DNA of 64,000 bases from Nesterenkonia pannonica (GTDB lineage: Bacteria > Actinomycetota > Actinomycetes > Actinomycetales > Micrococcaceae): NCBI RefSeq assembly GCF_019575955.1, contig NZ_CP080575.1, positions 2,418,001 through 2,482,000 of the forward strand, read 5' to 3'. Of the stretch, positions 1-64,000 are shown in pieces (positions within the stretch are counted from its first letter, which is position 1; every line of letters begins with the position of its first letter). Under the pieces are notes generated by a model. That model was not told the origin of the DNA, made no database searches, and saw nothing but the letters and a program-made list of their open reading frames with translations. Position numbers and translations under genes: made by a program.

Positions 1-695
1 CTCAGTCAGCTCCGGCAGGGATCCGAGGGCAGATTCGGTGCCGCGCACCAGGTAAGCCACGACCAGTGCGAGGAGCCCAGCGGTGAAGTTGATGAGCGTC
101 ACCGGCGCAGGACTGACGTAGGCCGCCGACTGCCGGGCGTTGATCACCTGCTGGTAGGCGTTGAGCATGCCCGCCAGAAGAGCAAGCCCGGCGCTGAGGA
201 TCCACGCTGCGCCGAAGCCGTCGCCGGAGATTCCCGGGACCAGGATGAGCATAATGGCAACCACTGTCAGGGCCGCCGCAGTGCCGCGCATGAGCGTCAG
301 CGGCTTGCGCCCGGCGGGGCTCAGGCCCACAGCGTCAAGAGTGATGTTCCCAGGAGCTGCCCCACGATGAGAGCCACGATGAAGACGGCTGCGCCCACCA
401 GCCCGATCGTCAGCGCCTGCGTGAAGACGACCAGTCCTCCGACGGCGCCCGCTCCGAGGTGCCACCAGCGCACCTGCCCCGACCGCAGGGCTGCCGGCAC
501 CCGCGCGGTCGCCCTGCGGCTTCCGGGGTGCAGCGCGCAGATGAGAATCATAAGGAGCAGTCCTCCGGCGAAGGAGGCCGCAGCGGCCAGAATCGGGTCG
601 CCTGCTTCCGCGCTCAGTGCGGCATTGATGCGCCCCTGGACCGGAAAGACCACTCCCGCCAGCAGCGCCAGGAGGACGAGGAGCAGCTTCTTCAC
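1..695 (-). CDS. DMT-family transporter, YdcZ/DUF606 type (3' end outside window)
   Basis: Integral membrane protein of the YdcZ (DUF606) branch of the drug/metabolite transporter superfamily. It starts MKKLLLVLLALLAG and shows the family pattern: a first helix followed by PVQGRINAALS, then about ten hydrophobic segments. The internal repeat is visible because the second half has LNAYQQVINARQSAAY, matching the first-half QGRINAALSAE block. One frame break lies near 330; joining the two frames gives an uninterrupted product to the window edge, so the C-terminus is missing only because the window ends. It lies downstream of the RpiR regulator gene, and a second copy is at 1637-2581, so the pair may form a two-component (EmrE-like) transporter. 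Substrate unknown; export or import of a purine-related metabolite is a guess from context. Confidence 0.75.
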
Positions 696-723
696 GCCGA
701 TCAGCCTGCCACAGGGGCGGCGA

Positions 724-1587
724 TCAGAGATCCTCGAGCTCGCCCATCTCCTCGTACGCCGCGGAGATGTGCGAGATGCGCCGGTGGCCGCTGGTGCGGC
801 GGGCGTCGAGGACGCCGCTGGAGAGGATGCTGATCAGCGACATTGCCGCCGCATAGGAGTCGAAGGCGCCGTCAGCATGGTGTGAGCACTCGATCCACGC
901 ATCCGCTCGGTAAGCATAGGGACGCGCCGTGGAATCCCCGATGAGGAGCAGCCCAGCCTCGGCCGCATCGACTCTCTCCACCACGCGCCCGAAGAGAGCC
1001 ACCTGCGGCGGAACCCCAGAACGATCACGAGATCCTCAGCCCCAGAGCGGCCAGCTCCTCCCCAGGGACTGTCCGGGCAGAGGCGCCAGCGTCACATCGC
1101 CGCGGATCTGGGTGAGCTGCTGGCGCAGATGAAGCGCGAGCGGGAACCCGTTGCGCAGCCCCACCACCACCACGCGCCGCGCGTCCGAGATCAGCTGCAC
1201 GGCCTGCTGCAGGCGTCCGCCCTCCAAGGCGGCCATGACCCTGCTGAGGTTCTCCCGCTCCTGCGCCTCGTGCCGCTCCAGGACGGTGAGCCCCTCGGTG
1301 TCCTCGGAGCTGGCCGGAGCAGTCGTGGGGATGCCCCGGTGCCGCAGCTCCCGCACGTGGTCGCGGACCTCGCTGAACGATTCGAACCCCAGCTTGCGGA
1401 AGATGCGGGAGACGGTCGCCTTCGACACGCCCGCTTCGCGGCTGATGTCGGCGGCGGAGAAGATGGCGAGGTCCCCGAGATGCTCCAGCAGGAAGTCCGC
1501 CACCCGTCGCTCCTGGGGCGGAAGCTCCCCGTATGCGGCGTCGATGCGTGCGTCGATCCGCCTGCTGGCGGGAGTGCTGACCTCCAT
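724..1587 (-). CDS. RpiR/MurR-family transcriptional regulator
   Basis: DNA-binding repressor/activator with an N-terminal RpiR helix-turn-helix (about residues 10-75; ELPPQERRVADFLLEHL, then the recognition part AGVSKATVSRIFRKLGF) and a C-terminal sugar-isomerase (SIS) domain (from about residue 125, ARRVVVVGLRNGF). Two frame breaks lie near 1060 and 1010; the three pieces join into a protein of about 285 residues, normal for the family. The start ATG at 1587 is 13 bases from a near-perfect TGAAAC-N4-GTTTCA palindrome (1601-1616), which suggests autoregulation. The same palindrome precedes several purine-catabolism genes in the window, so this is the best candidate for the regulator of that regulon. 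The SIS-domain ligand is unknown; a purine breakdown intermediate is an inference. Confidence 0.82.
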
Positions 1588-1600
1588 GGCGTCAGGATAC

Positions 1601-1616
1601 CGAAACGAATGTTTCA
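1601..1616. promoter_or_regulatory. Palindromic operator, copy 1 (upstream of RpiR gene)
   Basis: CGAAACGAATGTTTCA: 11 of 12 positions match the TGAAAC-N4-GTTTCA palindrome. It sits directly in front of the RpiR start codon. Confidence 0.65.
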
Positions 1617-1636
1617 GCAGATGAGCTGGGTGCGTC

Positions 1637-2581
1637 TCAGCGGGGACGAGAGCGACGGATGTCCGGCAGCGACGCCACCAGCACAGCGACGAGGGTCAGC
1701 ACCGTTCCGGCCACCGTGGCGAAGGCGATCACGGATCCGGGCGCAGGGAAGATGATGTCCAGCACCAGGAGCCCACCAGCTGCCCGGCGATCATCCCCAT
1801 GGCGGTGACCAGCACCCCCACTTGGGTGATGAGGTAGGCGCCCAGCCCCACAAAGATCAGCCCGAGGGCGCCGCCCAGATAGTTCCACCACACCGTCGGC
1901 AGCGCCTCCCCGTCCCGGCGATGAGCACCTTGCCCCCGTACACCGCAGCCATGAGCAGCGCTCCGGTGAGGAAGTTGAAGAGAGTGGCCGGAAGCAGGGT
2001 CCCGTAGGCAGCCGTCTGCCGACCATTGATGGCCTGCTGGGCCGACTGCACGAACCCTCCGGTGAAGGGAAGCACCACCATCAGGGCCCAAGCGAGCCCG
2101 CCGTTGGAGCCCAGCTGCGGGAGACGGCCCAGAGCACCGAGACGATGGTCAGCGCCGCACCGATCAGCCGAAAGCCGTTGAGCTGCTTGGGCCCTCCGGA
2201 GCCCAGCCCGATCTTGTCCCACAGCAGGCCTCCGATCGTCTGTCCGGTCACCACCGCCACGGAGAACACCGCGACCCCGACGACGGCCATGGCCACGCCT
2301 TGGGTAAAGATGAAGTAGGTGCCCAGACAGCCTGCGAGAAGATGCCACCACGACACCTCGCCGCTGCGCAGCGCCGGTCCGACCGCAGCGAGCCCCCACC
2401 TGCCGCGGCGGGTGAGGAGCGTGACCGGGGCGATGATTGCCAGCCCCACGAGATAGGTGAAGAGCGTGGAGATGAGAGGGTCATTCGCCGCCGCAGCGAG
2501 CTCCGCATTCACACGGCCCTGGGCCGGGATGGCCGCCCCTGCCGCGAGCATCACTCCGAGGAGCCACAGCCACTTCACCAT
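1637..2581 (-). CDS. DMT-family transporter, YdcZ/DUF606 type (second copy)
   Basis: Paralogue of the protein at 1-695. The N-terminus (MVKWLWLLGVMLAAGAA, then PAQGRVNAELAAA) and the mid-protein repeat (QSAQQAINGRQTAAYG) match the first copy, including the WWHL motif in the middle of the first half. Frame breaks near 2120, 1918 and 1765; after joining, the product is about 313 residues with ten hydrophobic segments, the expected size. It ends IRRSRPR shortly before the RpiR operator and is encoded on the same strand as RpiR. The two copies flank the regulator gene, suggesting that both belong to the same response. Substrate not predictable. Confidence 0.75.
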
Positions 2582-8514: not shown

Positions 8515-9325
8515 TCAGTGCTCGCCGTCCGCGGAGTCGCCGAAGAGCAGGTCCGACGCGTGGTCGACCAGAGCGTGGAACTCGGGGTGCGCTGCATCTC
8601 CGGGGTGCGGGGTCGCGGCAGGTTCACTTCGAAGACCTCTTTGATCTCACCGGGCCGGGCACTCATCACGGCGACCACGTCTGAGAGGAATATCGCCTCG
8701 GAGATTCCGTGGGTGACCATCAGCGTGGTGGTAAGCTTCTCCGTCCAGATGCGCAGCAGCTCCAGGTTGAGCGCTGACGCGTCATGTCGTCCAACGCGCC
8801 GAACGGCTCGTCGAGCAGCAGCACCGATGGTTTGACGACCAGCGCCCGGGCGATGGAGACGCGCTGACGCATGCCGCCGGAGAGCTCCGCGGGGCGGGAC
8901 TTCTCGAACCCTTTGAGCCCCACCAGCTCAATGAGGTCCTCGATCAGCCCCGGCTCGGGCCTGATCCCGGCCACCTCCAGGGGCAGCCGGATGTTGGAGT
9001 GCACCGACCGCCAGGGCAGCAGGGCCGAGTCCTGGAACGCGATCCCCAGGTGATTGGAGGAGCGCAGCTCCTCCGGGGTGTGGCCGTCCACCAGGAGCTC
9101 ACCGCTGGTGGGCTCCTCCAGTCCTGCGAGCATCCGCAGGATGGTGGACTTGCCGCACCCGGAGGGCCCCAGGAGGGAGAGGAACGTGCCTCGTCCGGTG
9201 GCAAGGTCCACGTCCTTCAGCGCCTGGACCTGCTTCTTTCCGGAGCCGAAGATCTTGTTCAGCCCCTTGAGGCTGACGCCGTCCCCGGTCAGATGCGGGC
9301 TTGTCTCAGCGGTCGCTGCGATCAC
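8515..9325 (-). CDS. ABC transporter ATP-binding protein (NMT1/SsuB type)
   Basis: ATPase that energises the importer. Walker [10 protein letters not shown] (about residue 53), Q-loop FQDSALLPW, signature [15 protein letters not shown], Walker [12 protein letters not shown] and H-loop VTHG are all present. One frame break near 8775, just after the D-loop. The following [10 protein letters not shown] probably reads [10 protein letters not shown], since the Leu-Thr comes from GCTTAC. The GTG start at 9325 overlaps the stop of the binding-protein gene (GTGA), showing translational coupling. Length about 270 residues, typical. Confidence 0.88.
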
Positions 9326-23027: not shown

Positions 23028-24154
23028 TTAGGCCAGGGCTCCCGACGCGGCGTACGCGTCATCGGCGACTGCACACGCTTCCAGCGATGCGTCGAGGTCC
23101 GCGATCAGGTCATCAGCATGCTCCAGGCCCACGAACAGCCGCACCATGCCCGGCCGAATCCCAGCGGCATCCCGCTCATGGTCGGCGAGGCGAGCGTGGG
23201 TGGAGCCTGCAGGATGGTCGGCCAGGGCACGGATGCCGCCGGTGCTCCCGCGCCGGGAGAACACCCGCAGCGCTCGCACAAGCTCTTGAGCGGCCTCGTG
23301 CTGCGCCTGCGCGCTTCGGCCTGCCCTGACCTCGAAGGCCAGCGCCGCGCCGACGCCGGCAGGCAGGTAGTCCCGGCGCGCTCCGCGCAGGGGCTGGTCT
23401 CCAGTCCGGCGTAGTAGGCACGGTGCACCCGGACGGCCCTGAAGGTGCTCGGCGATCCGCTGGGCGGTCTCATTCTGCTGGCGGACGCGCGCTGCCAGGG
23501 ATTCGAGCCCTCGGATCACCTGCTCGGCGACCACGTCGGGCAGCCGCACCTGCTGCGGGTAGCCTACCGGTGCGCGTGTGAGCTGCTCCGCGCAGCGGGC
23601 TCCACTGTGCTTAAGCGTCGACGATCACGCCTCCGGCCTGGCCGCCGCGTCCGGCGAGCAGATCGAGGCTGGTGTGCACCACAAGATCCGCGCCCTGCTC
23701 CACCGGTCTGGCCAGGAAGGGGGGGTGGCGAGGGTGTTGTCGATGATCAGTGCCGCGTCGGCCTGACGGGCGAGCTCCGAGATCTCGGCGAAGGCGAAAA
23801 CGTCGCCCCGCGGGTCGGCGATGGTCTCTCCAAGCAGCGCAGCTGTGCTGGGACTCAGGTGGGCGGCCCAGGAGGCGGCGTCGTCGGGATCTTCGACCAC
23901 CTCGGCGTCGACGCCGTAGCGGGGCAGGAGCTCGACGAAGGTCTCCGGTTCCCGGCGAACATCGATGGGGTCACCAGGACGCTGGTGCCGGGCTCGGCGA
24001 CGTGCAGCACGGCAAGTGCCAGGGCGTCGGGCCCGTGCGCGACGGCGCGCGCCTGGTGGCCGGATTCCAGCGCGGCGAGCGTCTGCTCGAGTGCGGGAGT
24101 GGGGGCGTCGGTGTCAGCGGCAGCCTGCAGCAGCCGTGTTTCGAATTCGGTCAT
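23028..24154 (-). CDS. MetY-like Cys/Met-metabolism PLP-fold protein lacking the catalytic lysine
   Basis: Homologous to O-acetylhomoserine sulfhydrylase over most of its length: ALEQTLAALESG, GTSVLVTPSMFAGN, VEDPDDAASW, GETIADPRGDVF, IIDNTLATPP and the C-terminal HPAGSTHARL with substrate-binding residues. Two core elements are missing. The N-terminal 40-50 residues with the Tyr-x-Arg phosphate-binding motif are absent (start ATG follows the riboswitch leader with a good GAGGAA site), and the PLP-lysine motif His-Ser-x-Thr-Lys reads VVHTSLDLLAGRGG, with Asp where Lys should be. Frame breaks near 23945, 23725, 23612 and 23430, none within that motif. It is either a pseudoenzyme or a decaying metY copy. 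Confidence 0.72.
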
Positions 24155-24224: not shown

Positions 24225-24345
24225 GGTCCGCGCTTGCTTACCCCGGCCTAGGGGTCGGCCAGGTCATCACCCGGGGCACCCCACCGCGAACTGGAGGGTT
24301 GCTTACCAGCAAACCGGGGTTTGACGCTGGCACTCTTGACCTTGT
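24225..24345 (-). promoter_or_regulatory. SAM-IV riboswitch
   Basis: Read on the minus strand, the leader contains the SAM-IV core in order: GGTCAAGAGTGCCAGCG, an AAACCCCGGTTT hairpin, GCTGG..GCAACCCTCC, then GCGGTGGGGTGCCCCGG and the closing GATGACC that pairs with the opening GGTC. The consensus has GCCGGC where this sequence shows GTAAGC. S-adenosylmethionine binding should shut off the downstream MetY-like and metX genes. Edges are approximate; the start codon of the first gene is about 70-100 bases further on. Confidence 0.88.
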
Positions 24346-38902: not shown

Positions 38903-39682
38903 GCTCGGCCGCCCCGCTGATCGGCAGCGTCAGCGCCCAGCCTGCGGAGGCGCTGGACGGAGCCCGCATCGGGGTCGTCACGTTCCCCGGCACCCTGGAC
39001 GACGGAGATGCCGCTCGCGCCGTCCGCCTGGGAGGCGGCAGTGCGGTCCCGCTGTGGCACGCGGACCAGTCCCTGCACGGCGTGGACGCGGTCGTCCTGC
39101 CCGGAGGGTTCTCCTACGGCGACTACCTGCGCGCCGGAGCCATCGCCCGCTTCGCACCCGTCATGGAGACCCTGGTGAAGGAGGCGGGCGCTGCCTCGAC
39201 GTCCTCTGCCCCCTCCCGGTGCTCGGCATCTGCAACGGGTTCCAGATCCTCACCGAGGCGCACCTGCTGCCGGGATCCATGATCAAGAACGACCACCTGA
39301 AGTTCATCTGCTCCGAGCAGGCCCTGCGCGTGGAGAGCACCCGGACGGCGTGGACCAGCCAGTTCACCCAGGATGAGATCATCGCGATCCCGCTGAAGAA
39401 CCAGGACGGCCAGTACGTCGCCTCATCCGAGGAGCTCGAGCGGCTCGAGGGCGAGGGGCTCGTCACCTTCCGCTACGTGGGCGGAAACCCCAACGGCTCG
39501 CGCAACGACATCGCGGGCATCAGCAACGCAGCCGGAAATGTGGTGGGGCTGATGCCCCACCCCGAGCACGCCATTGAGGCTTAGGCTACGGCCCCGACGA
39601 CGCCACAGGGATGCGCAGCGGAACGGACGGGCTGACCCTGTTCACCTCCGTGCTCTCGTCCCTTGCAGGAGGATCCCAGTGA
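38899..39682 (+). CDS. purQ: Phosphoribosylformylglycinamidine synthase, glutaminase subunit PurQ
   Basis: Class I glutamine amidotransferase supplying ammonia to PurL. Motifs: [29 protein letters not shown], nucleophile Cys in [10 protein letters not shown] and His/Glu in [10 protein letters not shown]. Frame break near 39190. An apparent stop at 39583 lies in GCTTAGGC; with GCCGGC it reads through as [12 protein letters not shown] and continues to TGA 39682, restoring the usual C-terminus and an overlap with purL (GTGA). About 260 residues after repair. Confidence 0.92.
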
Positions 39683-42042
39683 CTGAGCAGAGCGTGAGCG
39701 AGCAGACCTTCAACATCGACACGGTCGACCACGCCGCATCCACCCCGGACGACGAGCTCCCGTGGGCCGATCTGGGCCTGAAGGACAACGAGTACACACG
39801 CATCGTCGACATCCTCGGCTTACGCCCCACCGCGGCAGAGCTGGCCATGTACTCCGTCATGTGGTCGGAGCACTGCAGCTACAAGTCGTCCAAGGTGCAC
39901 CTGCGCCAGTTCGGCGAGAAGGTCACCGAGGAGATGAAGCGCGACCTGATGGTCGGCATCGGCGAGAACGCCGGCTGTCACCGACCTCGGCGACGGCTGG
40001 GCCGTGACCTTCAAGATCGAGTCGCACAACCACCCCAGCTACGTGGAGCCCTACCAGGGCGCCGCGACCGGCATCGGCGGCATCGTCCGCGACATCATCT
40101 CCATGGGCGCCAGACCCGTAGGAGTCATGGACCCTCCGGTTCGGAGCGATCGATCACCCCGACACCCAGCGGGTGCTGCCCGGCGTGGTCTCCGGGATCG
40201 GCGGCTACGGCAACTCGCTGGGCCTGCCCAACATCGGCGGCGAGGTCGTCTTCGACGAGATCTACCAGCAGAACCCGCTGGTGAACGCTTTGGCCGTGGG
40301 CGTCATGCGGCACGAGGACCTGCGTCTGGCGAATGCTTCCGGCGTCGGCAACCGCGTCGTGCTCTTCGGCGCGCGCACCGGCGGCGACGGCATCGGCGGC
40401 GCCTCCGTGCTCGCCTCCGAGTCCTTCGACGACTCCAAGCCCTCCAAGCGCCCGGCTGTGCAGGTGGGCGACCCTTCGCTGAGAAGGTCCTCATCGAATG
40501 CTGCTTGAGCTCTTCAAGGGCGAGCTCGTGGAAGGCATCCAGGATCTGGGCGCGGCAGGCATCTCCTGCGCCACCAGCGAGCTGGCCTCCAACGGCGACG
40601 GCGGCATGCACGTGGAGCTCACCAACGTGCTCCTGCGGGACCCCACGCTCACGCCCGGGAGATCCTCATGTCGGAGTCCCAGGAGCGGATGATGGCCGTC
40701 GTCACTCCCGAGAACGCCGAAGCGTTCGAGTCGGTCCTGGGCACCTGGGGCGTGGAGTACTCGTGGCTGGGCGAAGTCACGGACACCGGTCGGCTCGTCA
40801 TCGACTGGAACGGGGAGACCATCGTTGACGTGGACCCCCGCACGGTGGCTCACGACGGACCCGTCTACGAGCGGCCATACCACCGTCCCGTGCGGCAGGA
40901 CGAGCTGCAGGCCGACACCTTCCGGTCCTCCGAGGCCTCCGCCGACCTGCCCGCCTCCGCGGAGCAGCTGGGCGAGACGGTGGTGGAGCTGATGTCCCAG
41001 CCGAACATGGCTGACGTCTCGTGGATCACCGACCAGTTCGACCGCTTCGTGCGCGGAAACACCGCACTCGCAGCCCGACGACGCCGGTGTCATCCGCGTC
41101 GATGATGAGACGGGGCTGGGCGTCGCCCTGGCCACCGACTGCAACGGCCGCTACGCCTACCTGGACCCCTACGAGGGTGCGCGCGCCGCCTTGGCCGAGG
41201 CCTACCGGAACGTGGCCACATCGGGGCCGTGCCGATGGCCGTCTCGGACTGCCTGAACTTCGGCTCCCGGAGGACCCGGCGATCATGTGGCAGTTCGCCG
41301 AAGCTGTCCGCGGCCTGGCGGACGGCTGCATGGAGCTGGGCATCCCTGTCACCGGAGGAAACGTCAGCCTGTACAACCAGACCGCAGGGCGTGCCATTCA
41401 CCCGACTCCCGTGGTGGGCGTGATGGGCAGGTTCGACGACGTCAGCCGTCGCACCCCTCAGGGCACCAACGCTGGGCCGACGGCCAGGCCGTCTACCTGC
41501 TGGGCGTGACCCGGGACGAGCTCGACGGCTCAGAGTTCGCACGGATGCGCGGACACCTGGGCGGCACTCCCCGCGGGTGGACCTCGCAGCGGAGAAGACC
41601 CTGGGCGAGCTCCTCATCAACGCGTCCCGCGACGGCATGGTCGACGCGGCCCACGACCTCTCCGAAGGAGGCTTGGCGGCCGCGCTTGCGGAGATGAGCC
41701 TGCGCTTCGGCGTCGGCGCCCGAGTGGCCATCGACGACCTCTGCGAACGCGACGGCGTAGACGCCTTCACGGCGCTGTTCAGCGAATCGCAGGGCCGTGC
41801 GCTCGTCGCCCTGCCGCGCTCGGAGGAGCTGCGCTTCACCGATATGACCAGCGCCCGCGGGTTCCCGCGCTGCGCATGGGAGTGGTCGATGCGGAGTCAG
41901 GCGGCCTGGAGATCTCCGGGCCCTTCGAAGGCGGCAGCTTCGGCATCGCCCTCGACGAGCTGAAGGACGCGTGGAGCAGCGTGCTCCCCAGCACTTCGAC
42001 ACTCTTCAGCAGGCCACGGAGGCCGTGCGCCAGGAGCCCTGA
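39679..42042 (+). CDS. purL: Phosphoribosylformylglycinamidine synthase, PurL subunit
   Basis: Synthetase subunit that makes FGAM from FGAR, ATP and ammonia. N-terminal [16 protein letters not shown] (catalytic His), [38 protein letters not shown]-type central repeat, and C-terminal [16 protein letters not shown]. About 785 residues. Frame breaks near 39972, 40135, 40475, 40660, 41072, 41222, 41265, 41475, 41575 and 41870, more than in any other gene here, yet each joins to the expected sequence. [10 protein letters not shown] at 39822 uses a TTA codon inside GCTTAC; family proteins have Gly-Arg-Arg-Pro there. Confidence 0.92.
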
Positions 42043-42048
42043 GCCGTC

Positions 42049-43000
42049 TCAGACGCCCAGGGACGCCTGCACTGACTTCAGCGCCGCAGCGGAGGCCTGC
42101 AGCTGCTCCGCCTCCTCCGAGGAGAACGGGGTGCTGCGGACCGGCTCTGCGCCCCGGCGGACACCACGGAGGGTATCGACAGGGCTGTGCCTTCAATGCC
42201 CAGGAACCCGTCGAGCACGCTGCTGACCGGCAGGATCGCATGCTGGTCCTGGAGGATGGCCTCCACGATCCGCACGGCGGAGAGCCCGATCGCGTAGTTC
42301 GTCGCGCCCTTGTTTACGATCACCTGGTAGGCGGCGCTGCGCACCTGGTCGGTGAGCCCATCGAGCTCGTCGCGGCTGAACACGGGCGCACCGTCACGCT
42401 CCCAGTCCAGCAGCGGGGTGGCCCCGATGCTCGCCGCTGACCAGAGGGGAAACTCCGTGTCCCCATGCTCGCCGACGATGTGCGCGTGCACGCTGGACTG
42501 CGCGACTCCTGCCCTCTGCGCCAGCTTCCATCGCAGACGTGCCGTATCGAGGACCGTTCCGGAGGAGAAGACCCTCTGGGAGGCAGTCCGGACAGAGACT
42601 GAGCTGCCACGGTGAGCACATCACAGGGATTGGTCACGAGCAGGTAGATCGCATCCGGGGCCCGCTCCAGCAGCTGCGGCATCATCTGCCGCAGAATCTC
42701 CACATTCGTGCCCGCCAGGTCCAGCCGGGTCTGGCTTAGGCGTGCTGCTTCGCGCCTGCGGTCACGACTACGATGTCGGCTCCTCGATGTGGGCCAGGTC
42801 AGCCCCTCCGGCGATGTCGGTGGCGCCGGTGAACTGGCTGCCGTGAGCCAGGTCCAGCACCTCAGCCTCCACCTTGGCCGCGTCGATGTCGTAGAGCCGC
42901 ACATGACGGGCGGCACCTCGGATCATGGCGGCATAGGCCGTGGCGGTCCTGACGCTGCTTACCCGACGATCGCCAGGGTCGAGTTCTCAATCGCACTCAT
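42049..43000 (-). CDS. ldh: L-lactate dehydrogenase (NAD-dependent)
   Basis: Interconverts pyruvate and lactate. N-terminal dinucleotide motif STLAIVG.. (disrupted by GTAAGC at 42958; with GCCGGC it becomes [13 protein letters not shown]), [21 protein letters not shown], the catalytic His motif [13 protein letters not shown] and [11 protein letters not shown]. The Arg/His/Asp catalytic set and the overall length of about 316 residues fit LDH; malate dehydrogenases of the same fold share part of this, but the Cys-Asp in NPCD and the GATNYAIG block favour lactate. Frame breaks near 42960, 42790, 42545 and 42155. Convergent with purL, six bases apart. Confidence 0.83.
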
Positions 43001-43100: not shown

Positions 43101-43162
43101 CGTCTCCTCGCAGAGAGGAAGACGTGGGGAGCTCACCGCCCCTTGTGCGGCAGTGCTGAGGA

Positions 43163-44785
43163 TCAGACGCGCGTGCTGTCCTCCAGCGGAGCCGGGTCCT
43201 CGAGCAGGCGGCCTGCCTTGCGGTCGGCCACGTACTGCTTGACCTCTGCCTTGACCTTCGGCGCCAGCACCACCAGGCCGACGACGTTGATGAAGATGCA
43301 GAGGAACAGTGCCGCGTCGGCGAACTCCAGGATGGAGCCGAAGCTGGTCAAACAGCCGAGCACCACGAACACCAGGACGAGCGCCCGGAAGATGTTGTCC
43401 TTCACCGGCGACTTGCCGAACACGTGGCGCCACGCCTGCGCCGTAGTAGGCCCAGGTCACGATGGAGGAGAACGCGAACAGTGCCACACACAGCAGAAGC
43501 ACGATCGGGAACCAGCCCATCACAGTGGCGAACGCAGCCGAGGTGTCAGCCACAGAGCCGACCTGCTCGCCCTCTGCGTGCATCTCGTTGAAGGCGGGGT
43601 TCTGCATGCCGATGATGATGACCAGGGCGGTCATGGTGCAGACCACCACAGTGTCGATGAACGGCTCCAGCGACGCGACGAAGCCCTCTGAAGCGGGCCG
43701 ACGCGTCTTGGCCGCAGAGTGGGCGATCGGCGCCGAGCCGATGCTTACCTCGTTGGAGAACGCAGCGCGCTGCGCACCCATGATGATGACGCCGAGGATG
43801 CCGCCTGCGATGCCCTCAGGGTTGAACGCTCCGGTGATGATGATGCCGATAGCGTTCGGCACTTCGGTGATGTTCACCAGAATGACGATGAGGGCGCCGA
43901 CGACGTAGATGATGGCCATGGCGGGGACCAGCCGGGAGGTGACCTTGCCGATGGACCTGATGCCGCCGATGATGACCAGGCCGACCAGGAAGGCGAAGAT
44001 GATGCCGAAGATCAGTGCGCCTGCGGTGGAGGTGAAGAAGTCCTCCAGGGCGGTGCCGCTGAAGTACTGGGTCGAGACCGCCTGAGCCTGCGTCATGGTC
44101 TGGTTGGTCTGGTACATGCCGCCGCCGCCGATGCCGAAGGCGATGATGGCGAAGGCGAAGATGCCCGTGATGACCGCGACCACCGGCTGCGGCAGCTTGC
44201 CGAATGCGACCTTCAGATACTGGAAGGGACCGCCGTGGACGATTCCGTCCTCATCGATGTAGCGGTACTTCACACCCAGCGTGGCTTCGACGAATTTGGT
44301 GGCCATGCCGCACAGGCCGATCAGAATCATCCAGAAGGTGGCGCCGGGGCCGCCCAATGAGATGGCTGCGGCCACACCGGCGATGTTTCCGAGTCCGACC
44401 GTGGCCGAGAGGGCGGAGGTCAGGGCCTGGAAGTGGGGACCTCGCCGGGGTCGTCAGCACGCGAGTACTTGCCGCGGACCACTTCAAGCGCGGTCTTGAA
44501 CCCGGTGAACTGGACACCCTTGAAGTAGATGGTGAATCCGATGGCCGCCAGGACGGACCATACGACCACCAGCAGAATGCCCTGGCCGTCGTACTCAGGT
44601 CCCCAGAAGATGATGCTGCCGAACCAGTCGGCGACGACGCCGAAGTTGCTGTCAATCTGACATGCGACGTCATCGAGGAAAGTTTCTCTGACGGCCGGGT
44701 CGCAGGACGCCGGGTCAGTCTCGGGGTCGAAGCCTGCGCCGGTGTCGGCGTCGGCTCCTTCAGCCAGGAGAGTCCCTGTGCTCAT
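43163..44785 (-). CDS. Alanine/glycine:cation symporter (AGCS family)
   Basis: Sodium-coupled amino-acid carrier with about ten membrane segments, about 540 residues. Signature blocks: TVGLGNIAGVAAAISLGGPGATFWM, KFVEATLGVKYR, the family fingerprint FSNEVSIGSAPIAHSAAKT (Val-Ser from GTAAGC; the fingerprint normally has Ala-Gly) and DTVVVCTMTALVI. The N-terminal extension is acidic, with a short stretch of Asp/Glu. Frame breaks near 44435 and 43440. Start ATG 44785 after GAGGGGATGAG. Sodium-driven uptake suits a salt-adapted cell. Confidence 0.87.
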
Positions 44786-44899
44786 ATCGTTCTCATCCCC
44801 TCGGATGTGGTGGTCGAGTGATGCAGCTGAGAGGGTTTTCACAGCATTGCGCCAAAGAGTACCGAATGAGCTGTTTCAAATGCGTTACTAAATGAAAGA

Positions 44900-44933
44900 G
44901 ATCCAGGTCACACCCTACAGGCGGTCCTGGATC
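44900..44933 (-). terminator. Rho-independent terminator of the gatCAB transcript
   Basis: On the minus strand GATCCAGG / CCTGGATC forms the stem and is followed by a T-rich TCTCTTTCATTT. It lies 27 bases after the gatB stop. Confidence 0.65.
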
Positions 44934-44959
44934 CTCCGAGCGGCAGTGCCGAGCACCGT

Positions 44960-46496
44960 TCAGCCTTCTATGCCGAGCCTCTCCAGCACGATGGCACGCA
45001 CCTTCCCCGCGTCGGCCTGGCCCTTCGTCTCCTTCATGACGGGGCCGATGAGCGCGCCGACGGCCTTGAGCTTCCCGCCCCTGACCTTCTCCACGACGTC
45101 AGGATTCTCGTCCATGGCCTTCTCCACAGCGGCTGTCAGGGCGCCATCGTCTGAGACCACCTCCAAACCACGGTCCGAGACGATCTCTGCCGGAGTGCCC
45201 TCACCGTCCACGTGATGCTCGAGCACCTGCCGGGCAAGCTTGTCGTTGATCCGCCCTCGTCGATGAGCTGGTGAAGCTCCACGATCGTGGCAGGCGTGAC
45301 GCCCAGCTCGACGGGCTCCACGCCTCGAGCGTTCGCCAGGCGGGAGATCTCGCCCATCCACCACTTGCGGGCCGTGGCCGGGCTCGCCCCGTGGGCCACC
45401 GTCTCCTCAATCTCGTCGAGGAGGTCGGCGGCGACGACGTCGCGGAACTCCTTGTCGGCATAGCCCCATGCCTCGCGCAGCGCCTCCGGCGGGCTGCGGG
45501 CGGCTCAGGAGCTGCGCGCGAAGCTCCTCGACCCATGCTGAGGTGGTCACGATCGGAACCAGGTCAGGCTCCGGGAAGTACCGGTAGTCATCCGCATCAG
45601 ACTTGGGCCGCCCGGACGACGTGGTCCGGGACGTCTCCAGCCAGTGGCGCGTCTCCTGGACGATGCTGCCGCTTACCAAGGATCAGGCATGTGGCGCCGG
45701 ATCTCATAGTGGACCGTGTGCTCGACGGCGCGCATGGAATTCACGTTCTTGGTCTCAGAACGTGTGCCGAACGTCTCCGCCCCCGGGGCATCAGGAGACG
45801 TTGGCGTCGCAGCGCACGTTTCCGTGCTCCATCTTGGCGTCGGAGATATTCAGCGACCTGACGATGTCGCGGACGGCGGCCACGTAGGCGCGTGCGATCT
45901 CGGGGCCCTCCTGTTTACTCCGGCGATCGGCTTGGTGACGATCTCGATCAGGGGAACGCCGGTGCGGTTGTAGTCGACGAGCGAGTAGTCGGCCCCCTGG
46001 ATGCGGCCCGAGGTGCCCGCGTGGGTCAGCTTGCCGGCGTCCTCCTCCATGTGCGCACGCTCGATCTCCACGCGGAAGATCTCACCGTCGTCGAGCTCGA
46101 CGTCGAGCCATCCCTCGTAGGCGATGGGCCTCGTCGTACTGGGAGGTCTGCCAGTTCTTGGGCAGGTCCGGGTAGAAGTACTGCTTCCGTGCGAAGCGGC
46201 AGTATTCGGCGATGGAGCAGTTCAGGGCGAGCCCCAGCCGGATGGCCGACTCGACGGCCTTGCCGTTGACCACCGGCAGGGTGCCGGGGAGGCCGAGGTC
46301 GACCTCATTGACGTTGGTGTTGGCCTCGTCGCCGAATGCGTTCGGAGCCGAGGAGAACATCTTGGACTTGGTGTTCAGCTCGACGTGCACTTCGAAGCCG
46401 AGCACCGGCTCGTACTTCTCGAGCGCCTCATCGAAGCTCAGGAGCGGCGTCGACGCGCGCTGCGGCGTCGGCCTGCGCCGTGGGTGTCTCGGTCAT
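44960..46496 (-). CDS. gatB: Asp-tRNA(Asn)/Glu-tRNA(Gln) amidotransferase subunit B
   Basis: tRNA-binding kinase subunit of the amidotransferase. Conserved blocks in order: [102 protein letters not shown] and the C-terminal YqeY-like tail [15 protein letters not shown]. About 510 residues. Frame breaks near 46450, 46120, 45915, 45800, 45690, 45505 and 45260. The ATG overlaps the gatA stop (TGATG). Confidence 0.92.
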
Positions 46497-48019
46497 CACT
46501 TGACCTCCTCGAGGTCGGGGATCTGCTGCCAGATGGCTTCGCCCTTCTCGCCCAGCAGGTGCTCCAGGGCGCCCGCTGCGTGATAGGCACGAATGTCCTG
46601 GCGCGCGGGGGCGAGGAACTGGATTCCGACGGGCAGACCCTCGGCCAGTCCGGCGGGAATGGAGATGCCGGGGATGCCGGCGAGGTTCGCTGGGATCGTC
46701 GCGACGTCGTTGAGGTACATCGCCAGCGGGTCGTCCATCTTCTCGCCCAGCTTGAACGGCACCGTGGGCGCCGTGGGGCAGATCAGCACGTCGGCCTCCT
46801 CGAAGGAACGGTCGAAGTCCCTCTGGATGAGCGTCCTGATCTTCTGAGCCGAACCGTAGTAGGCGTCGTAGTAGCCCGCCGAGAGGGCATAGGTTCCGAG
46901 CACGATCCGGCGCTTGACCTCTTCGCCGAAGCTTACCGCACGGCTGGCAGCCATCACGCGCTCGATGGTGATCGGCCCTCCTCGGGCAGCGCACGGCTGC
47001 CGTACCGGACGCCGTCGTACCGGGCCAGGTTGGAGGATGCCTCCGACGGCATGATCAGGTAGTACGCGCCCAGGGCGTAGTCGAAGCTCGGGCAGTCCAC
47101 CTCGACGATCTCCGCTCCGGCTTCGCGCAGCGAGTCCAAGGACGACTGGAACGCGTCGAGCACGCCCTGCTCGTAGCCCTCGCCGTGGGACAGCTGCTTG
47201 ATGACCCCGATGCGCATTCCGGTGATGTCGTGGGTGCTTGCGGCCTTCGCGAACTCCGGGACGTCATCCGGCAGTGAGGTGGAGTCCTTCGGGTCGTGTC
47301 CCCGATCAGTTCGTGGAGCAGAGCGGCGTCCTGCACGGTGCGTGCGCACGGACCGATCTGGTCCAGCGAGGAGGCCATGGCGATGGCCCCGTACCGCGAC
47401 ACGCCACCGTATGTGGGCTTGGTCCCCACGGTTCCGGTGAACGCGGCTTACTCCCTGATGGAGCCGCCGGTGTCGGTGCCCAGCGCCAGAGGAGCCTCGA
47501 AGGCGGCGACCGCTGCGGCCGAACCGCCTCCCGAGCCTCCGGGATTCGGCTGACGTCCCACGGGTTGCGCGTGATTCCGTAGGCCGAGTGCTCGGTGGAG
47601 GATCCCATGGCGAACTCGTCAAGGTTGGTCTTTCCCAGGATGGGAAGCTTCGCCTCACGGATCTTCTCGATGACGGTGGCGTCGTAGGGGCTCATCCATC
47701 CTTCGAGCATCTTGGACGCCGCGGTGGTGGGCTGGCCCTTGGTCACGATGAGGTCCTTCACCGCGATCGGCACGCTTACCAGCGGGTGCAGCGCCTCGGC
47801 CTCCGGGCCTCCGGCCTCACGGATGCGGTCCACCTCTGCCGCGACCTCGAGGGCCTCCTCGGAGTTGACGTGCAGGAACGCATTCACAGTGGGCTCCACC
47901 TCTGCGATGCGGTCCAGGTGGGACTGCGTGAGCTCCACCGACGTGATCTCGCGGGAGAGGAGCTTCGAAGCCATCTCGACGGCGGTGAGCCTGACGAGCG
48001 GGTGTGCTTGAACGGTCAT
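46496..48019 (-). CDS. gatA: Asp-tRNA(Asn)/Glu-tRNA(Gln) amidotransferase subunit A
   Basis: Amidase subunit that releases ammonia from glutamine. Ser-Ser-Lys triad regions: VPIAVKD (Lys), the Gly/Ser-rich loop, and DTGGSIR (nucleophile Ser). Three GTAAGC sites fall in conserved motifs: [11 protein letters not shown] at 47773 (family LAGVP), an in-frame stop after GGSIRE at 47448 (family REPAAFTG) and [14 protein letters not shown] at 46931 (family [12 protein letters not shown]). All are restored by GCCGGC. Other breaks near 47545, 47300 and 46975. About 505 residues, ATG 48019. Confidence 0.93.
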
Positions 48020-48029
48020 GTGTAGAGGA

Positions 48030-48328
48030 TCACTCCTGATCGAGAATGGCAGGAACCTTGAAGCGGCCGTCTTCGGCGTCGGGGGCGTTGGCCAGAGACT
48101 GCTCCGGGGTGAACGTGTGCCCGATGACGTCGTCGCGGAAGACGTTGGTGAGCGGAATGGGGTGGCTGGTGGCGGGATGTCCTCACCAGCGGCCTCCTGG
48201 ACCGTCTTCACCGCATCCACAATCTCAGCCAGCTCAGCGACCGTGCGGTCAAGCTCACCCTCAGTCATCGCGATGTGGGCAAGCTTGGCAAGATGCTCGA
48301 CGTCGGCGCGCGAGATCTCCTCTGACAT
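48030..48328 (-). CDS. gatC: Asp-tRNA(Asn)/Glu-tRNA(Gln) amidotransferase subunit C
   Basis: Small subunit that stabilises GatA-GatB. About 99 residues: [30 protein letters not shown], then after a frame break near 48175 [35 protein letters not shown], in pieces exactly as in the family. The ATG follows the PP2C stop with no gap (TGAATG), and gatA starts 10 bases downstream. Confidence 0.92.
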
Positions 48329-49094: not shown

Positions 49095-49147
49095 TCTCCC
49101 ATCTTGTCACGGATCGTTGCCGGTCTGTGATGCTCCGGCACCTCCTG

Positions 49148-52167: not shown

Positions 52168-53766
52168 ATGACCCCTGAGCCCGACTTGAAGACGACCGTA
52201 AGCAAGCTGGCCGAGTTCCGCCGTCGTCGCGACGAGTCCCTGGCCCCCGCGGGTCAGGCCGCCGTGGAGAAGCAGCACAACCGCGGCAAGCACACCGCCC
52301 GGGAACGGGTGGAGATGCTCCTCGACGAGGGCAGCTTCGTGGAGTTCGATGCGCTCGCTGTGCACCGCTCAACATCGTTCGGCATGGACGCCAAGCACCC
52401 CATCGGCGACGGCCTGGTCTCCGGGTACGGAACCGTCGACGGAGCCTGACGGCGGTCTACTCGCAGGACTTCACCGTCTTCGGCGGATCTCTCTCGAAGG
52501 TCAACGGCGAGAAGATCGTCAAGGTTCAGGAGTTCGCAGCCCGCAACGGCTGCCCCGTCATCGGCATCAACGACGGCGGCGGAGCGCGCATTCAGGAGGG
52601 CGTGGCCTCCTGGCGATGTTCGCCGACATCTTCCGCAACAACGTGCACTCCTCCGGCGTCGTCCCGCAGATCACCCTGATCATGGGACCCTCGGCCGGGG
52701 GTGCGGCCTACTCGCTTACGCTGAACGACTTCATCATCATGGTCGACAAGACCAGCCACATGTTCATCACCGGCCCAGACGTGATCAAGTCCGTCACCGG
52801 TGAGGACGTCGACATGGAGTCCTCGGCGGTGCCCGCTCGCACAGCACCACCACCGGCACGGCCAGCTACATGGCCCAGGACGAAGAGGACGCCATCGAGT
52901 TCGCCAAGGAGCTCCTCGAGTTCCTTCCGCTGAACAACCTGGCAGAGGCCCCCGTGGACCAGGAGGCTCTGGACGCCTATGAGACCCGCCCCAAGGTGGA
53001 GCCTGAGGATGAGGCCCTCAACGAACTCGTCCCCGACTCAGCGTCTGCCCCTATGACATGACGGAGCTGGTCGAGCAGATACTCGACGACGGCCACTTCC
53101 TGCAGCTGCAGCCGATGTACGCGCCCAATGTGATGATCGGGTTCGGCCGCGTCGAAGGACGCAGCGTCGGCGTGGTCGCCAATCAGCCGTCCCAGTTCGC
53201 CGGCACCCTGGACATCTCCGCCTCGGAGAAGGCTGCCCGCTTCGTCCGCTTCTGCGACGCCTTCAACATCCCCGTGCTGACCTCGTGGACGTCCCCGGCT
53301 TCCTGCCCGGCACCGACCAGGAGTGGAACGGGATCATCCGTCGCGGCGCGAAGCTGCTCTACGCCTACGCTGAGGCGACCGTTCCCAAGATCACCGTCAT
53401 CACGCGCAAGGCATTCGGCGGCGCATACATCGTCATGGGCTCCAAGAAGCTGGGCGCCGACGTGAACCTGGCGTGGCCCACCGCCCAGATCGGCGTGATG
53501 GGAGCCCAGGAGCGGTCAACATTCTCCACCGCCGCGACCTGGCGCAGACCGAGAAGAGCGGCGGCGACGTCGAGGCGCGGCGCACCGAGCTGATCGACGA
53601 CTACGAGGCCGAGCTGCTCAACCCCTACCAGGCCGCCGAGCTGGGCTACATCGATGCGGTCATCGAACCTGCGGAGACCCGCTGGCAGGTGGCCAAGGCG
53701 CTGCGAGCCACCTTCCACAAGCGTGAGACCCTCCCCGCCAAGAAGCACGGGAACATTCCGCTGTGA
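52168..53766 (+). CDS. Acyl-CoA carboxylase, beta (carboxyltransferase) subunit
   Basis: Carboxyltransferase of the propionyl/acetyl-CoA type, about 533 residues. Landmarks: [35 protein letters not shown] (first oxyanion site), the [31 protein letters not shown] block, [18 protein letters not shown] (CoA site), [13 protein letters not shown] and [12 protein letters not shown]. Two GTAAGC-type sites (52204, 52716) sit where homologues have Ala-Gly and Pro-Ala. Frame breaks near 52448, 52610, 52830, 53056, 53283 and 53512. The stop overlaps the epsilon subunit start. Chain-length preference (acetyl versus propionyl) is undecided. Confidence 0.9.
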
Positions 53767-54088: not shown

Positions 54089-54814
54089 GCGCCCGAGCGA
54101 ACCGCCCGCGGCTCATCCTCGCCTCCGCGTCCCCAGCCGACGGCAGATCCTGTCCGATGCTGGCATCGACTTCGACGTGGTGGTCTCAGACATCGACGAA
54201 CGCATCCTGGTCGAGCAGGCGGTGGAGGCGGGCGGCCCGGTCTCGCTTACCGAAGAGGCCCTGATGCTCGCCCAGGCCAAGGCCGAGGACGTCGCCTCCC
54301 GGCCCGAGGCTCGCGGAGCCTTCGTCCTGGGCTGCGACTCGGTCTTCGAGCTGGAGGGCGTCGCCTACGGCAAGCCCTACGACGTGGAGACCGCAGTGGC
54401 TCGCTGGCACAGGATGCGCGGAACCACCGGCACCCTGCACACCGGCCACTGGCTGGTGGAGGCGACGCCCCACAGCTCCAAGGCCCGCCACTGGGCCGGG
54501 GCCGGGATGGAGGTCCTGCTGGGATCGACCCCGGGCGACACCGGCCAGCTCGAGGCGGCGGCGGAGACCGTCTCCTCAGACATCACCTTCGGCCGCCCCA
54601 GCGACGAGCAGGTCCGCGCCTACTGCTCCTCCGGAGAGCCGCTGCACTGCGCAGGAGCCTTCACCCTCGAAGGCGGAGCGGCCGCATTCATCGACCACGT
54701 CGACGGCGATCGGGACGCCGTCATCGGGGTCTCCCCGCGGCTCTGGCACGACTGCTGGAACGGATGGGCCGCACCGTTCAAGACTTCCGCAACGACACGA
54801 CGAAGGACGCCTGA
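54085..54814 (+). CDS. maf: Maf-family nucleotide pyrophosphatase
   Basis: Hydrolyses modified or non-canonical nucleoside triphosphates. [16 protein letters not shown] at the N-terminus is the family motif; the catalytic Asp is in [11 protein letters not shown], followed by [24 protein letters not shown] and [19 protein letters not shown]. About 243 residues, with a frame break near 54135 and one near 54755; the end KDA matches relatives. [14 protein letters not shown] has Leu-Thr from GCTTAC. Placement inside a carboxylase operon is common in actinobacteria. Confidence 0.88.
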
Positions 54815-62666: not shown

Positions 62667-62683
62667 CAGAGAGCTTCCGACCG

Positions 62684-63798
62684 CTAATGGGCGCCCTCGA
62701 GGGCGTCAGCGAAGTCGTTGAGGAAGTCGGTGTATGCCTGGACGTCCTCGGTGAGGTACATGCCCTGCGGCATGTAGACGATCTGGTCCTGCTCGATCGC
62801 AGAGGTCTCCTGCAGGGCAGGCGAGTCCGCGATGAGGTCCTCGGCCGGGGTGTACTCCGGGTCCTCGGGGTTCATGCCGTCGCGATCCAGCACGATGATC
62901 CAGTCCGGATCCGCGTCGGCAATGGCCTCCACCGAGATGTCATCCCCTCGTGGTCGCTGGATTCGTCCTCCACCTCAAGGGCGGGCTCCAGGTCGAGCTC
63001 CTGGAAGATCTCGGCAACGGCGCGGCCTTCGTTGGGGCCTGCATAGTTGATGTCGCCGCCGGAGGTCAGCAGACCCATCACGGTGTCCTCACCGTTGTAC
63101 GCCTCGGATGCACGCTCGATGGCGGCGTCGAGGTCGTCGATCAGCGCCTGAGCCTCATCCTCGGCGGCGAAGATCGTCCCGATGCTCTGTGCCTGCTCGC
63201 GCAGACCGTCGAAGAGGGTCTCGGGGTCTTCGAGCGCCTCGCTCCATTCCAGGATGACGCCGCCCTCGGGCATCAGGGCGGCCATGTCGTCGTAGTACTG
63301 GGAATACCGCTGACCGGTGATGACCAGGTCCGGCTCCGCAGCGGCGAAGACTTCGAAGTCGGGCTCCTGGTGGTTTCCGGTGTCGAGGATGTCCTCGTCG
63401 TCGGCATAGACCTCGTGGATGTGGGGCTGCATGAGCCCTCGGGCGGCGACGTCCAGCTCCACGCCCAGATCCTCCAGGAGGCGGAAGGTGCGGTTGTCGA
63501 ACGCCCGACGGAGTCGATCTCATCGAGACTGATGTCGTGGGTTCCGTGATCGTCCTCGATCTCGACGGTGCCGCCGCCCTCCTGGGCACCATCCTCCCCT
63601 CGGCCTCCTCCGCACCGTCGGAGTCGCCTGCGTCCTCTGCCGCGGTGTCCGCGCTTACTCAGCCTCTTCGGCTTCCTGCTCACCATTGTCGCCGCAGGCG
63701 GTGAGCGCCAGGAGAGCCACCGCCCCTGCGGAGAGCAGTTTGGCCAGTGTCGTCGTCTCGCCGGAAATCGCAGCGGGTGGAGTGATCATCGAAGGCAT
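62684..63798 (-). CDS. Siderophore-binding lipoprotein (Peripla_BP_2, YclQ/CeuA type)
   Basis: N-terminus has a hydrophobic segment ending LTAC (lipobox, Cys about 39), then a long Glu/Asp/Gly linker and the ferric-siderophore fold: FAAAEPDLVITGQRYSQYYDDM, MGLLTSGGDINYAGPNEGRAVAEIF and DWIIVLDRDGMNPED. About 370 residues, strongly acidic. Frame breaks near 63655, 63600, 63500 and 62950; GTAAGC at 63652 creates a false stop inside the linker. Directly downstream of an iron box. Confidence 0.85.
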
Positions 63799-63816
63799 AC
63801 CGTCCTCATCGTCGAA

Positions 63817-63835
63817 TTTACTTAGCCTGTCCTAA
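63817..63835 (-). promoter_or_regulatory. DtxR/IdeR-type iron box
   Basis: On the minus strand TTAGGACAGGCTAAGTAAA matches the DtxR/IdeR consensus TTAGGTTAGGCTAACCTAA at 14 of 19 positions. It lies 19 bases before the start of the siderophore-binding lipoprotein gene, so iron-dependent repression is expected. Confidence 0.65.
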
Positions 63836-63951
63836 GCTCAAAAGAGCATAAACTTAGGTGGCACCTTCGGCAACAAGGCGACCATTACGTTACACAAATG
63901 TTGCGAAATGGCTCAGGGTGCTTCGGCGCCGACCTCCTATAGCGTGGCCCC

Positions 63952-64000
63952 GTGTCCGACACCGAACTCAAGCCGGTCCTCAGCCCCGAGGGGTGGGAGC
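63952..64000 (+). CDS. 5' end of a plus-strand gene of unknown function
   Basis: GTG at 63952 opens an uninterrupted frame VSDTELKPVLSPEGWE to the window edge. A TATAGC -10-like box at 63939-63944 ends about 7 bases before the GTG, consistent with a leaderless start. It is transcribed away from the iron-box operon. Too short to identify. Confidence 0.4.
   Translation, partial: MSDTELKPVLSPEGWE

What the first reader, a model, noticed from the sequence alone, without database searches (positions are those of the whole stretch)
1..64000. GCCGGC palindrome is systematically replaced by GTAAGC/GCTTAC: likely footprint of a modified base
GTAAGC or GCTTAC, or 5-8 base variants (GTAAC, GTAAAC, GTTTAGC, GCTTAGC, GCTTAAGC), occur again and again exactly where a conserved motif needs GCCGGC. 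Examples: recR LG[R]LPGIG (32072), the SAM-IV core (24302), gatA LAGVP, REPAAFTG and [11 protein letters not shown] (47773, 47448, 46931), purL GRRPT (39822), accD-like TAGKLAEF and YSPALNDF (52204, 52716), symporter NEAGIGSAPIA (43744), cls YTPAMIHSK (59550), XDH AGGTNL (12122), IclR LPAATTHRLL (18086), PurQ EAGYGPDD (39583), dnaX LIAGSGPEG (30245), MetY-like VDAG (23612), ldh VGAGSV (42958). Sense-preserving, stop-making and frame-shifting cases are all repaired by one substitution. By eye I find about 19 intact GCCGGC but about 45 altered ones, while ACCGGC, TCCGGC and CCCGGC are abundant and unaltered. A palindromic, motif-specific error of this kind is what a modified recognition site (for example a GCCGGC methyltransferase of NaeI/NgoMIV type) would give in single-molecule sequencing. 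The modification itself is inference.
Basis: partly seen in the sequence, partly recalled or inferred. Interest (0 to 1): 0.85.

Follow-up and report, generated by a model that had tools for sequence, protein, structure and literature searches.

The report
Methylated GCCGGC misread in genome assembly
In this bacterial genome the DNA letters GCCGGC are wrongly written as GTAAGC and similar strings, most likely because the living cell marks that site with a NaeI-type restriction-modification system and the long-read sequencer misread the mark; the organism is ordinary, but the held sequence carries a readable imprint of its DNA methylation along with false gene breaks.

Summary
In the window GCCGGC occurs 19 times against 61 expected. 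In the whole genome it occurs 686 times against 2715 for the reversed control; in 18 of 18 relatives GCCGGC exceeds that control. At GTAAGC/GCTTAC, relatives mostly encode Ala-Gly, x-Pro-Ala or x-Arg-x, the three readings of GCCGGC; protein identity is 23% at the site and 74% beside it. Both GCCGGC stretches of a SAM-IV riboswitch are altered. Decisive: three rRNA sites with GCCGGC in every same-genus row that covers them are altered in both rRNA operons (6 of 6), and at 2 of 3 the two operons disagree. The two 23S copies otherwise differ only in homopolymer length. That is consensus error of nanopore type, not biology. Outside the window the genome carries a broken NaeI homologue beside a C5 cytosine methyltransferase and a Vsr gene; NaeI recognises GCCGGC. 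Modification-induced nanopore errors are known; this motif, cassette and strand mosaic are a new instance. The mark (5mC) and the platform are inferred, not measured.

The parts
24225..24341 (-). SAM-IV riboswitch (RF00634); both consensus GCCGGC stretches read GTAAGC (plus-strand GCTTAC at 24236 and 24301), with non-standard pairs marked there
   Evidence: cmscan 92.1 bits, E 2.3e-15, alignment shown; relative G004 has GCCGGC at 24301
8731..8736 (+). altered site GTAAGC; window residues KLT, relative KPA
   Evidence: one relative, G013, has GCCGGC
23609..23616 (+). altered site GCTTAAGC (two bases longer)
   Evidence: the one aligned relative, G004, has GCCGGC
30254..30258 (+). altered site GTAAC (one base shorter) near the dnaX domain III ORF
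   Evidence: GCCGGC in 4 of 7 aligned relatives; PF12169 in the ORF 30148-30951
39579..39586 (+). altered site GCTTAGGC
   Evidence: GCCGGC in 4 of 8 aligned relatives
39818..39823 (+). altered site GCTTAC, GLR for GRR in 8 of 8 relatives (purL)
   Evidence: PF18072 in the ORF
42957..42962 (+). altered site GCTTAC
   Evidence: the one aligned relative, G004, has TCCGGC
43743..43748 (-). altered site, Val-Ser for Ala-Gly (7 of 8 relatives) in a sodium:alanine symporter
   Evidence: PF01235
45671..45676 (-). altered site, Val-Ser for Ala-Gly (5 of 10), Ala-Ala (4) or Thr-Gly (1)
   Evidence: amidase PF01425 in neighbouring ORFs
47446..47451 (-). altered site making an in-frame stop where relatives have Pro (gatA)
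   Evidence: 10 relatives; 9 of 9
47774..47779 (-). altered site, Val-Ser for Ala-Gly in 10 of 10 relatives (gatA)
52198..52203 (+). altered site GTAAGC, Val-Ser for Ala-Gly in 6 of 6 relatives
52714..52719 (+). altered site, SLT for SPA in 8 of 8 relatives
54245..54250 (+). altered site, SLT for SPA in 3 of 5 relatives
37663..37668 (+). surviving GCCGGC (7 of 7 relatives agree)
46033..46038 (.). surviving GCCGGC (6 of 10 relatives agree)

Best explanation
The cell's DNA has GCCGGC at these places, with a modified base, most likely 5-methylcytosine set by the C5 methyltransferase of a NaeI-type restriction-modification cassette at 174.7-177.1 kb of the same contig. Native DNA was read by a single-molecule (nanopore) instrument whose basecaller did not know the modified site. 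Reads of one strand gave mainly GTAAGC and reads of the other strand its complement GCTTAC, plus forms of 5 to 8 bases. The consensus kept whichever strand was locally in the majority and was not corrected with short reads. Shown: the motif, the error, its presence in rRNA, its disagreement between two copies of one rRNA, the homopolymer loss and the NaeI/C5-MTase/Vsr genes. Inferred: platform, strand mechanism, that this cassette (not another enzyme) makes the mark, and that the mark is 5mC.
For: Two rRNA operons: three sites where GCCGGC stands in 8 of 8 covering relative rows (16S) and in 7 of 11 and 7 of 11 rows (23S, the seven being all same-genus rows) read GCCTAC/GCCTAC, GCTTAC/GCCTAGC and GTTAC/GTAAGC in the two copies (only sites shared by at least 3 relative rows were listed). 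No GCCGGC is left in either 6089-base rRNA locus, against 5 to 8 in three relatives' loci. The two 23S copies differ in 12 blocks: 10 homopolymer lengths and 2 of these sites; 5 of 6 relatives compared in two copies show 0 differences, G013 has 2 blocks. SAM-IV, both sites. Proteins: site identity 59 of 259 (23%) vs flank 1522 of 2070 (74%) over 23 sites, gaps counted as mismatch; 14 control motif sets have site identity within 0.12 of flank identity. 0 of 103 aligned relative cells at 22 GTAAGC/GCTTAC sites carry either string; some relative has GCCGGC at 10 of 22 sites, against 0 for most control 6-mers and 1 of 20, 1 of 11, 3 of 8 and 1 of 15 for GCTGAC, GCAAGC, GCTTGC and GCCTAC. C/G runs of 6 or more: 1 in 464 kb, 3.2 to 36.8 per 100 kb in seven relatives. 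Neighbouring altered sites agree in orientation in 137 of 195 pairs (5000 permutations: mean 100, maximum 129; relatives 11 of 19); pairwise agreement is 0.66-0.79 up to 12 kb, 0.61 at 12-20 kb, 0.39 at 20-40 kb (window only), 0.52 expected. Survival depends on flanks: 0.40 and 0.32 of relatives' density in CGCCGGCA and CGCCGGCG, 0 to 0.06 where G precedes or C follows. Cassette: PF09126 7.3e-21 and 2e-27, PF00145 1.1e-53, PDB NaeI 1ev7/1iaw 1.7e-19 and 3.8e-12, Vsr 5.7e-15. The MTase is up to 66% identical to MTases beside NaeI genes of other genomes. NaeI is given as GCCGGC in PMC7653180 (passage). GCCGGC holds no A on either strand, so 6mA is excluded.
Against: GTAAGC/GCTTAC, GCTTAAGC and GCTAAGC/GCTTAGC in excess plus survivors make about 356 sites in 464 kb against 726 scaled from relatives (my sum), or 385 by Markov. 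Part of the shortfall may be other altered forms (4 of 6 rRNA readings are neither GTAAGC nor GCTTAC) or true avoidance of GCCGGC, which some NaeI carriers show. Where relatives share GCCGGC, only 10 of 51 sites were intact or altered and 41 had diverged otherwise. The NaeI and MTase genes are themselves broken in the assembly, so activity cannot be read from them. A second C5-MTase fragment (1761 kb) was not excluded as the source. 5mC at GCCGGC need not spoil nanopore reads: a gonococcal preprint (PMC12871193, passages) called 32 of 33 such sites methylated in pilE/pilS and mentions no read errors in the passages seen, so an older or other basecaller, or another mark, must be assumed here. 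A GTAAGC count about equal to its reversed control is not unique by itself (G015 653 vs 623; G391 557 vs 594), though there GCCGGC is not depleted.
Confidence: 0.91

Rival explanations
1. Real evolutionary avoidance of GCCGGC: a NaeI restriction enzyme selects against its own site, so the genome has replaced it by other sequences.
For: Some NaeI carriers are truly poor in GCCGGC: G179 2835 vs control 16663, G376 3493 vs 15691, G345 5851 vs 20381 (21 of the 25 other carriers were given, four with weaker matches, G109, G160, G252 and G308, were left out). It may explain part of the shortfall here.
Against: Those three show no excess of GTAAGC+GCTTAC over the reversed control (297 vs 635, 916 vs 5369, 239 vs 936; G000 1238 vs 1037). 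Avoidance cannot change conserved rRNA, two copies differently, nor put a stop in gatA. Carrier G017, whose MTase is 66% identical, has normal GCCGGC (7479 vs 5267).
Confidence: 0.04
2. The error is motif-specific but not due to modification: a basecaller weakness for unmodified GCCGGC in GC-rich DNA.
For: Survival depends on neighbouring bases; homopolymer loss shows an uncorrected long-read consensus.
Against: None of 18 relatives shows it, although their platforms are unknown. No other GC-only palindrome is among the eight most depleted 6-mers. The coincidence with a NaeI homologue would be unexplained (26 of 394 genomes of the class, this one included, have PF09126).
Confidence: 0.04
3. 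The mark is not 5mC from this cassette but another cytosine or backbone modification at GCCGGC (N4-methylcytosine, phosphorothioate, or a hypermodified C).
For: The error is heavy (three bases and indels), while 5mC at GCCGGC was handled by nanopore tools in a gonococcal preprint (PMC12871193, passages). The chemistry was not measured here.
Against: No PF01555 N6/N4-MTase was found in G000 (a broken gene could be missed). The NaeI neighbour is a C5-MTase, with Vsr beside it. m5C at position 3 of GCCGGC is listed for Aeromonas hydrophila NEB724 (PMC8565308, passage), and M.NgoMIV is listed as m5C (PMC12114051, passage). Dnd/Ssp genes were not searched.
Confidence: 0.07

Closest known systems
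Modification-mediated nanopore consensus errors (Listeria GCAGC and GCTGG, PMC10687267; Dcm CCWGG in Klebsiella, PMC6591954; passages read)
   Same: Errors confined to a modification motif, surviving consensus, lowering assembly quality; in PMC10687267 tied to strain-specific modification systems.
   Different: Motif GCCGGC with a NaeI-type gene set; heavy three-base substitutions and length changes in a held single-contig genome of 62% estimated completeness; inferred from the assembly alone, without reads.
NaeI restriction-modification system (type IIE, GCCGGC)
   Same: PF09126 endonuclease homologue beside a C5-MTase, a pairing seen in other genomes of the class; motif agrees.
   Different: Genes are broken in this assembly; cleavage and methylation not tested.
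Measured 5mC at GCCGGC: Aeromonas hydrophila NEB724 (PMC8565308) and Neisseria gonorrhoeae (preprint PMC12871193); passages
   Same: Same motif, 5mC.
   Different: Different organisms and enzymes; measured there, inferred here; no misreading was mentioned in the passages seen.

Membership tests
Modification-induced nanopore consensus error | Errors confined to one short recognition motif | tested here: met
   GCCGGC is the lowest 6-mer, next z -5.9; homopolymer errors exist besides
Modification-induced nanopore consensus error | True sequence differs from assembly at conserved places | tested here: met
   rRNA, SAM-IV, proteins
Modification-induced nanopore consensus error | Homopolymer shortening typical of the platform | tested here: met
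Modification-induced nanopore consensus error | Disappears on amplified DNA or short reads | not testable with these tools
   no reads held
NaeI type IIE R-M system | Endonuclease matching PF09126 / NaeI structures | tested here: met
   four pieces lie between profile positions 2 and 267 of 288; frames broken
NaeI type IIE R-M system | Neighbouring cognate C5-MTase | tested here: met
   18 of 25 other NaeI loci hold a homologue of this MTase at E 2.2e-33 or better, 3 a weaker one, 4 none within the fetched flank; that it is cognate is inferred
NaeI type IIE R-M system | Cuts or protects GCCGGC | not testable with these tools
   only indirect: the error motif itself, and GCCGGC depletion in some carriers
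Vsr-linked 5mC system | Vsr endonuclease gene beside the MTase | tested here: met
   PF03852 5.7e-15 at G000:C1:176646-177083

The most novel reading that the evidence does not exclude
Uncorrected long-read assemblies in public databases hold a decodable methylome: the consensus errors alone name the recognition motif, separate modified from surviving sites by context, and record in their orientation which strand's reads won in each 10-20 kb patch, so that specificities of uncharacterised restriction-modification systems can be assigned from deposited assemblies without any raw data.
Probability: 0.55. Interest if true: 0.55.

Novelty: new member of a known kind. Interest (0 to 1): 0.42.

Why it matters
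By the tool's description the held genome stands for a species, yet its estimated completeness is 62% and some of its genes are broken on paper only. Anyone reading pseudogenes, absent pathways or the 16S sequence from it will be misled; even 16S carries the error in both copies. Conversely, the errors give a methylation motif and its likely enzymes for an actinobacterium from sequence alone, and the same scan (a depleted GC palindrome plus an enriched odd replacement, clustered by orientation) could flag other deposited assemblies.

Tried and rejected
Relative-centred DNA test: low power, because relatives average 70.5-77.7% identity. GCCGGC was kept at 8 of 227 sites where any relative has it (3.5%, the lowest of 29 motifs; the other 28 lie between 5.5% and 39%). 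With the stricter criterion 4 of 51 were intact and 6 altered; GC-only palindrome controls kept 15-40%, but GCGGGC only 1 of 22. The site-centred protein test and rRNA were used instead. The first rRNA alignment was wrong because minus-strand loci were not turned.

Internal-stop scan: 96 distinct stops, which I take to be mostly antisense shadow frames of relatives' ORFs; only 3 lay in GTAAGC/GCTTAC, so the scan is not used as statistics.

In one search some sites have poorly conserved flanks (identity 0.25-0.5: 8349, 27533, 30795, 33930, 53842, 53968, 63653), and at 30759, 30795 and 33154 relatives' residues fit GCCGGC only in part; all are in the totals.

Gene strand as the cause of orientation clustering: unlikely, since the 8 consecutive sites 39818 to 50461 are all GCTTAC and those placed in a frame lie in genes on both strands. 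Not tested over the whole genome. The relatives' control for neighbour agreement is small (11 of 19).

5mC deamination as real mutation would give GCTGGC/GCCAGC, not GTAAGC; neither is among the 45 most enriched strings listed. RNA editing or another genetic code: does not explain rRNA copies that disagree.

Whether G001-G012 carry NaeI was not directly searched (sampled the class; same-genus G367 is a visible negative). Of the same-genus PF00145 hits the closest to this MTase is 37% identical (there only ORFs of 200 aa or more were compared for that set).

Organism: hits of one window protein are Actinomycetota; no closer named relative was found (best 64-68% identity). The 16S identity of the first rRNA site rests on the universal sequence just downstream, recognised from memory.

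Papers: PMC10687267, PMC6591954, PMC11649196, PMC4081073, PMC8565308, PMC10082018, PMC7653180, PMC548270, PMC12871193, PMC9820200 and PMC12114051 by passages only; all others only as search listings. PMC4081073 prints the NaeI site as GCC|CCG, apparently a misprint. As far as searched, no paper was seen to report nanopore errors at GCCGGC; GCCGGC with basecalling gave 0 papers. Three of the 8 papers were not opened.


Full report
OBSERVATION. The window is G000:C1:2418001-2482000, part of a single 2,699,453-base contig with estimated completeness 62.49%. GCCGGC is the most depleted 6-mer in the window and in 464 kb of the genome (112 vs 385 expected, z -13.9); in seven same-genus relatives it is not (z -1.5 to +0.75). 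Genome-wide there are 686 GCCGGC against 2715 CGGCCG; in 18 of 18 relatives searched GCCGGC exceeds CGGCCG. GTAAGC+GCTTAC number 1238, more than in any of the 18.

WHAT STANDS AT THE SITES. In 23 window sites with protein alignments to relatives, the two or three residues touched by GTAAGC/GCTTAC agree with relatives in 59 of 259 cells, the flanking residues in 1522 of 2070. At the well-conserved sites relatives have Ala-Gly, x-Pro-Ala or x-Arg-x, the three readings of GCCGGC; at 30759, 30795 and 33154 they fit only in part. Fourteen control motif sets, among them ACCGGC, CCCGGC, CGGCCG and surviving GCCGGC, show site identity within 0.12 of flank identity. Of 103 aligned relative cells at 22 sites, none carries GTAAGC or GCTTAC. 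Seven of the 23 sites have poorly conserved flanks (identity 0.25-0.5) and carry little weight; they are in the totals.

RNA EVIDENCE. A SAM-IV riboswitch at 24341-24225 has two GCCGGC stretches in its consensus; both read GTAAGC. The genome has two rRNA operons. One site in 16S has GCCGGC in 8 of 8 covering relative rows; two sites in 23S have it in 7 of 11 rows each, the seven being all same-genus rows. In this genome the six readings are GCCTAC and GCCTAC, GCTTAC and GCCTAGC, GTTAC and GTAAGC. Neither 6089-base locus retains any GCCGGC, against 5, 5 and 8 in the loci of G002, G004 and G013. The two 23S copies differ in 12 blocks, 10 of them run lengths and 2 of them these sites. Of six relatives compared in two copies, five have identical copies and G013 has 2 difference blocks. 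Two copies of a conserved rRNA that disagree only at homopolymers and at GCCGGC cannot reasonably be biology.

SIGNS OF THE MACHINE. Runs of six or more C or G are almost absent (1 in 464 kb; seven relatives 3.2-36.8 per 100 kb), as expected of an unpolished nanopore consensus, where long runs are under-called (PMC11649196 passage). GTAAGC and GCTTAC are unequal on the contig (506 vs 732) and clustered: by 20-kb stretch 10:2, 1:12, 9:1, 0:6 and so on, heterogeneity p 1.7e-8, neighbours agreeing in 137 of 195 pairs against a permutation maximum of 129, agreement falling to 0.61 at 12-20 kb and 0.39 beyond 20 kb (the last from the window alone). Inference: the two strands of a modified palindrome are misread in complementary ways, and the strand with more reads wins locally. 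Survivors sit mostly in CGCCGGC[A/G] (72 of 112), as expected if the basecaller's view of neighbouring bases decides.

THE ENZYMES. At 174.7-177.1 kb of the same contig lie a C5 cytosine methyltransferase (PF00145, frameshifted), a convergent, frame-broken NaeI homologue (PF09126; PDB 1ev7/1iaw) and a Vsr gene. NaeI recognises GCCGGC (PMC7653180 passage). 26 of 394 genomes sampled from the class, this one included, have PF09126. In 18 of the 25 other NaeI loci a homologue of this methyltransferase lies in the fetched flank (E 2.2e-33 or better), up to 66% identical, and 10 of 25 have a homologue of this Vsr protein. No PF01555 (N4/N6) methyltransferase was found in G000. The motif has no A, so adenine methylation is excluded. 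A 5mC mark made by this cassette is therefore the best inference. A second, partial C5-MTase at 1761 kb beside an SSB gene is not excluded. In the gonococcus 5mC at GCCGGC was called from nanopore data without mention of errors in the passages seen (preprint PMC12871193), so the misreading must also depend on the basecaller or flowcell used here, which is unknown.

AVOIDANCE VERSUS ERROR. Some NaeI carriers truly lack GCCGGC (21 of 25 other carriers searched), but the three most depleted do not have GTAAGC in excess. Here the two may coexist: the counted altered forms and survivors (about 356 in 464 kb) fall short of 726 scaled from relatives, though they come near the Markov expectation of 385. 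As 4 of 6 rRNA readings are forms other than GTAAGC/GCTTAC, uncounted forms may fill the gap. This is open.

KNOWN OR NEW. Nanopore consensus errors at methylation motifs are well described (Dcm, PMC6591954; Listeria GCAGC/GCTGG, PMC10687267; passages). 5mC in GCCGGC is known (PMC8565308; PMC12871193). New is the instance: motif, error form, NaeI-type gene set, and the strand mosaic preserved in a held genome. No paper was seen to report it. I file it as a new member of a known kind. It is useful as a warning and as a way to read methylation from assemblies, and not a new biological system.

Noticed in passing
G000:C1:1761148-1761705 (L119, L261): Second C5-methyltransferase fragment with an in-frame TAA, beside an SSB gene, perhaps in a phage-like region; no second palindrome depleted like GCCGGC was seen in the 464-kb sample.
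   Followed up: partly
G179, G376, G345: NaeI-bearing genomes with strong real depletion of GCCGGC (ratios 0.17, 0.22, 0.29 to the reversed palindrome), while other carriers (G017, G391) show none.
   Followed up: partly
whole contig G000:C1: GCTTAC outnumbers GTAAGC 732 to 506 on the contig's plus strand, while relatives are roughly balanced; the reason for the overall bias is unknown.
   Followed up: partly
G000 sample, 464 kb: CTAG is strongly depleted (122 vs 425 expected), which from memory is common in bacteria.
   Followed up: no
G006 contigs C9 and C10: The same region matches two contigs of one relative with identical scores, suggesting redundant contigs in that assembly.
   Followed up: no
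G000:C1:168001-182000 (L260): Around the NaeI cassette lie a 570-aa ORF with, by eye, a P-loop ATPase motif and other ORFs that were not searched; possibly a defence island.
   Followed up: no
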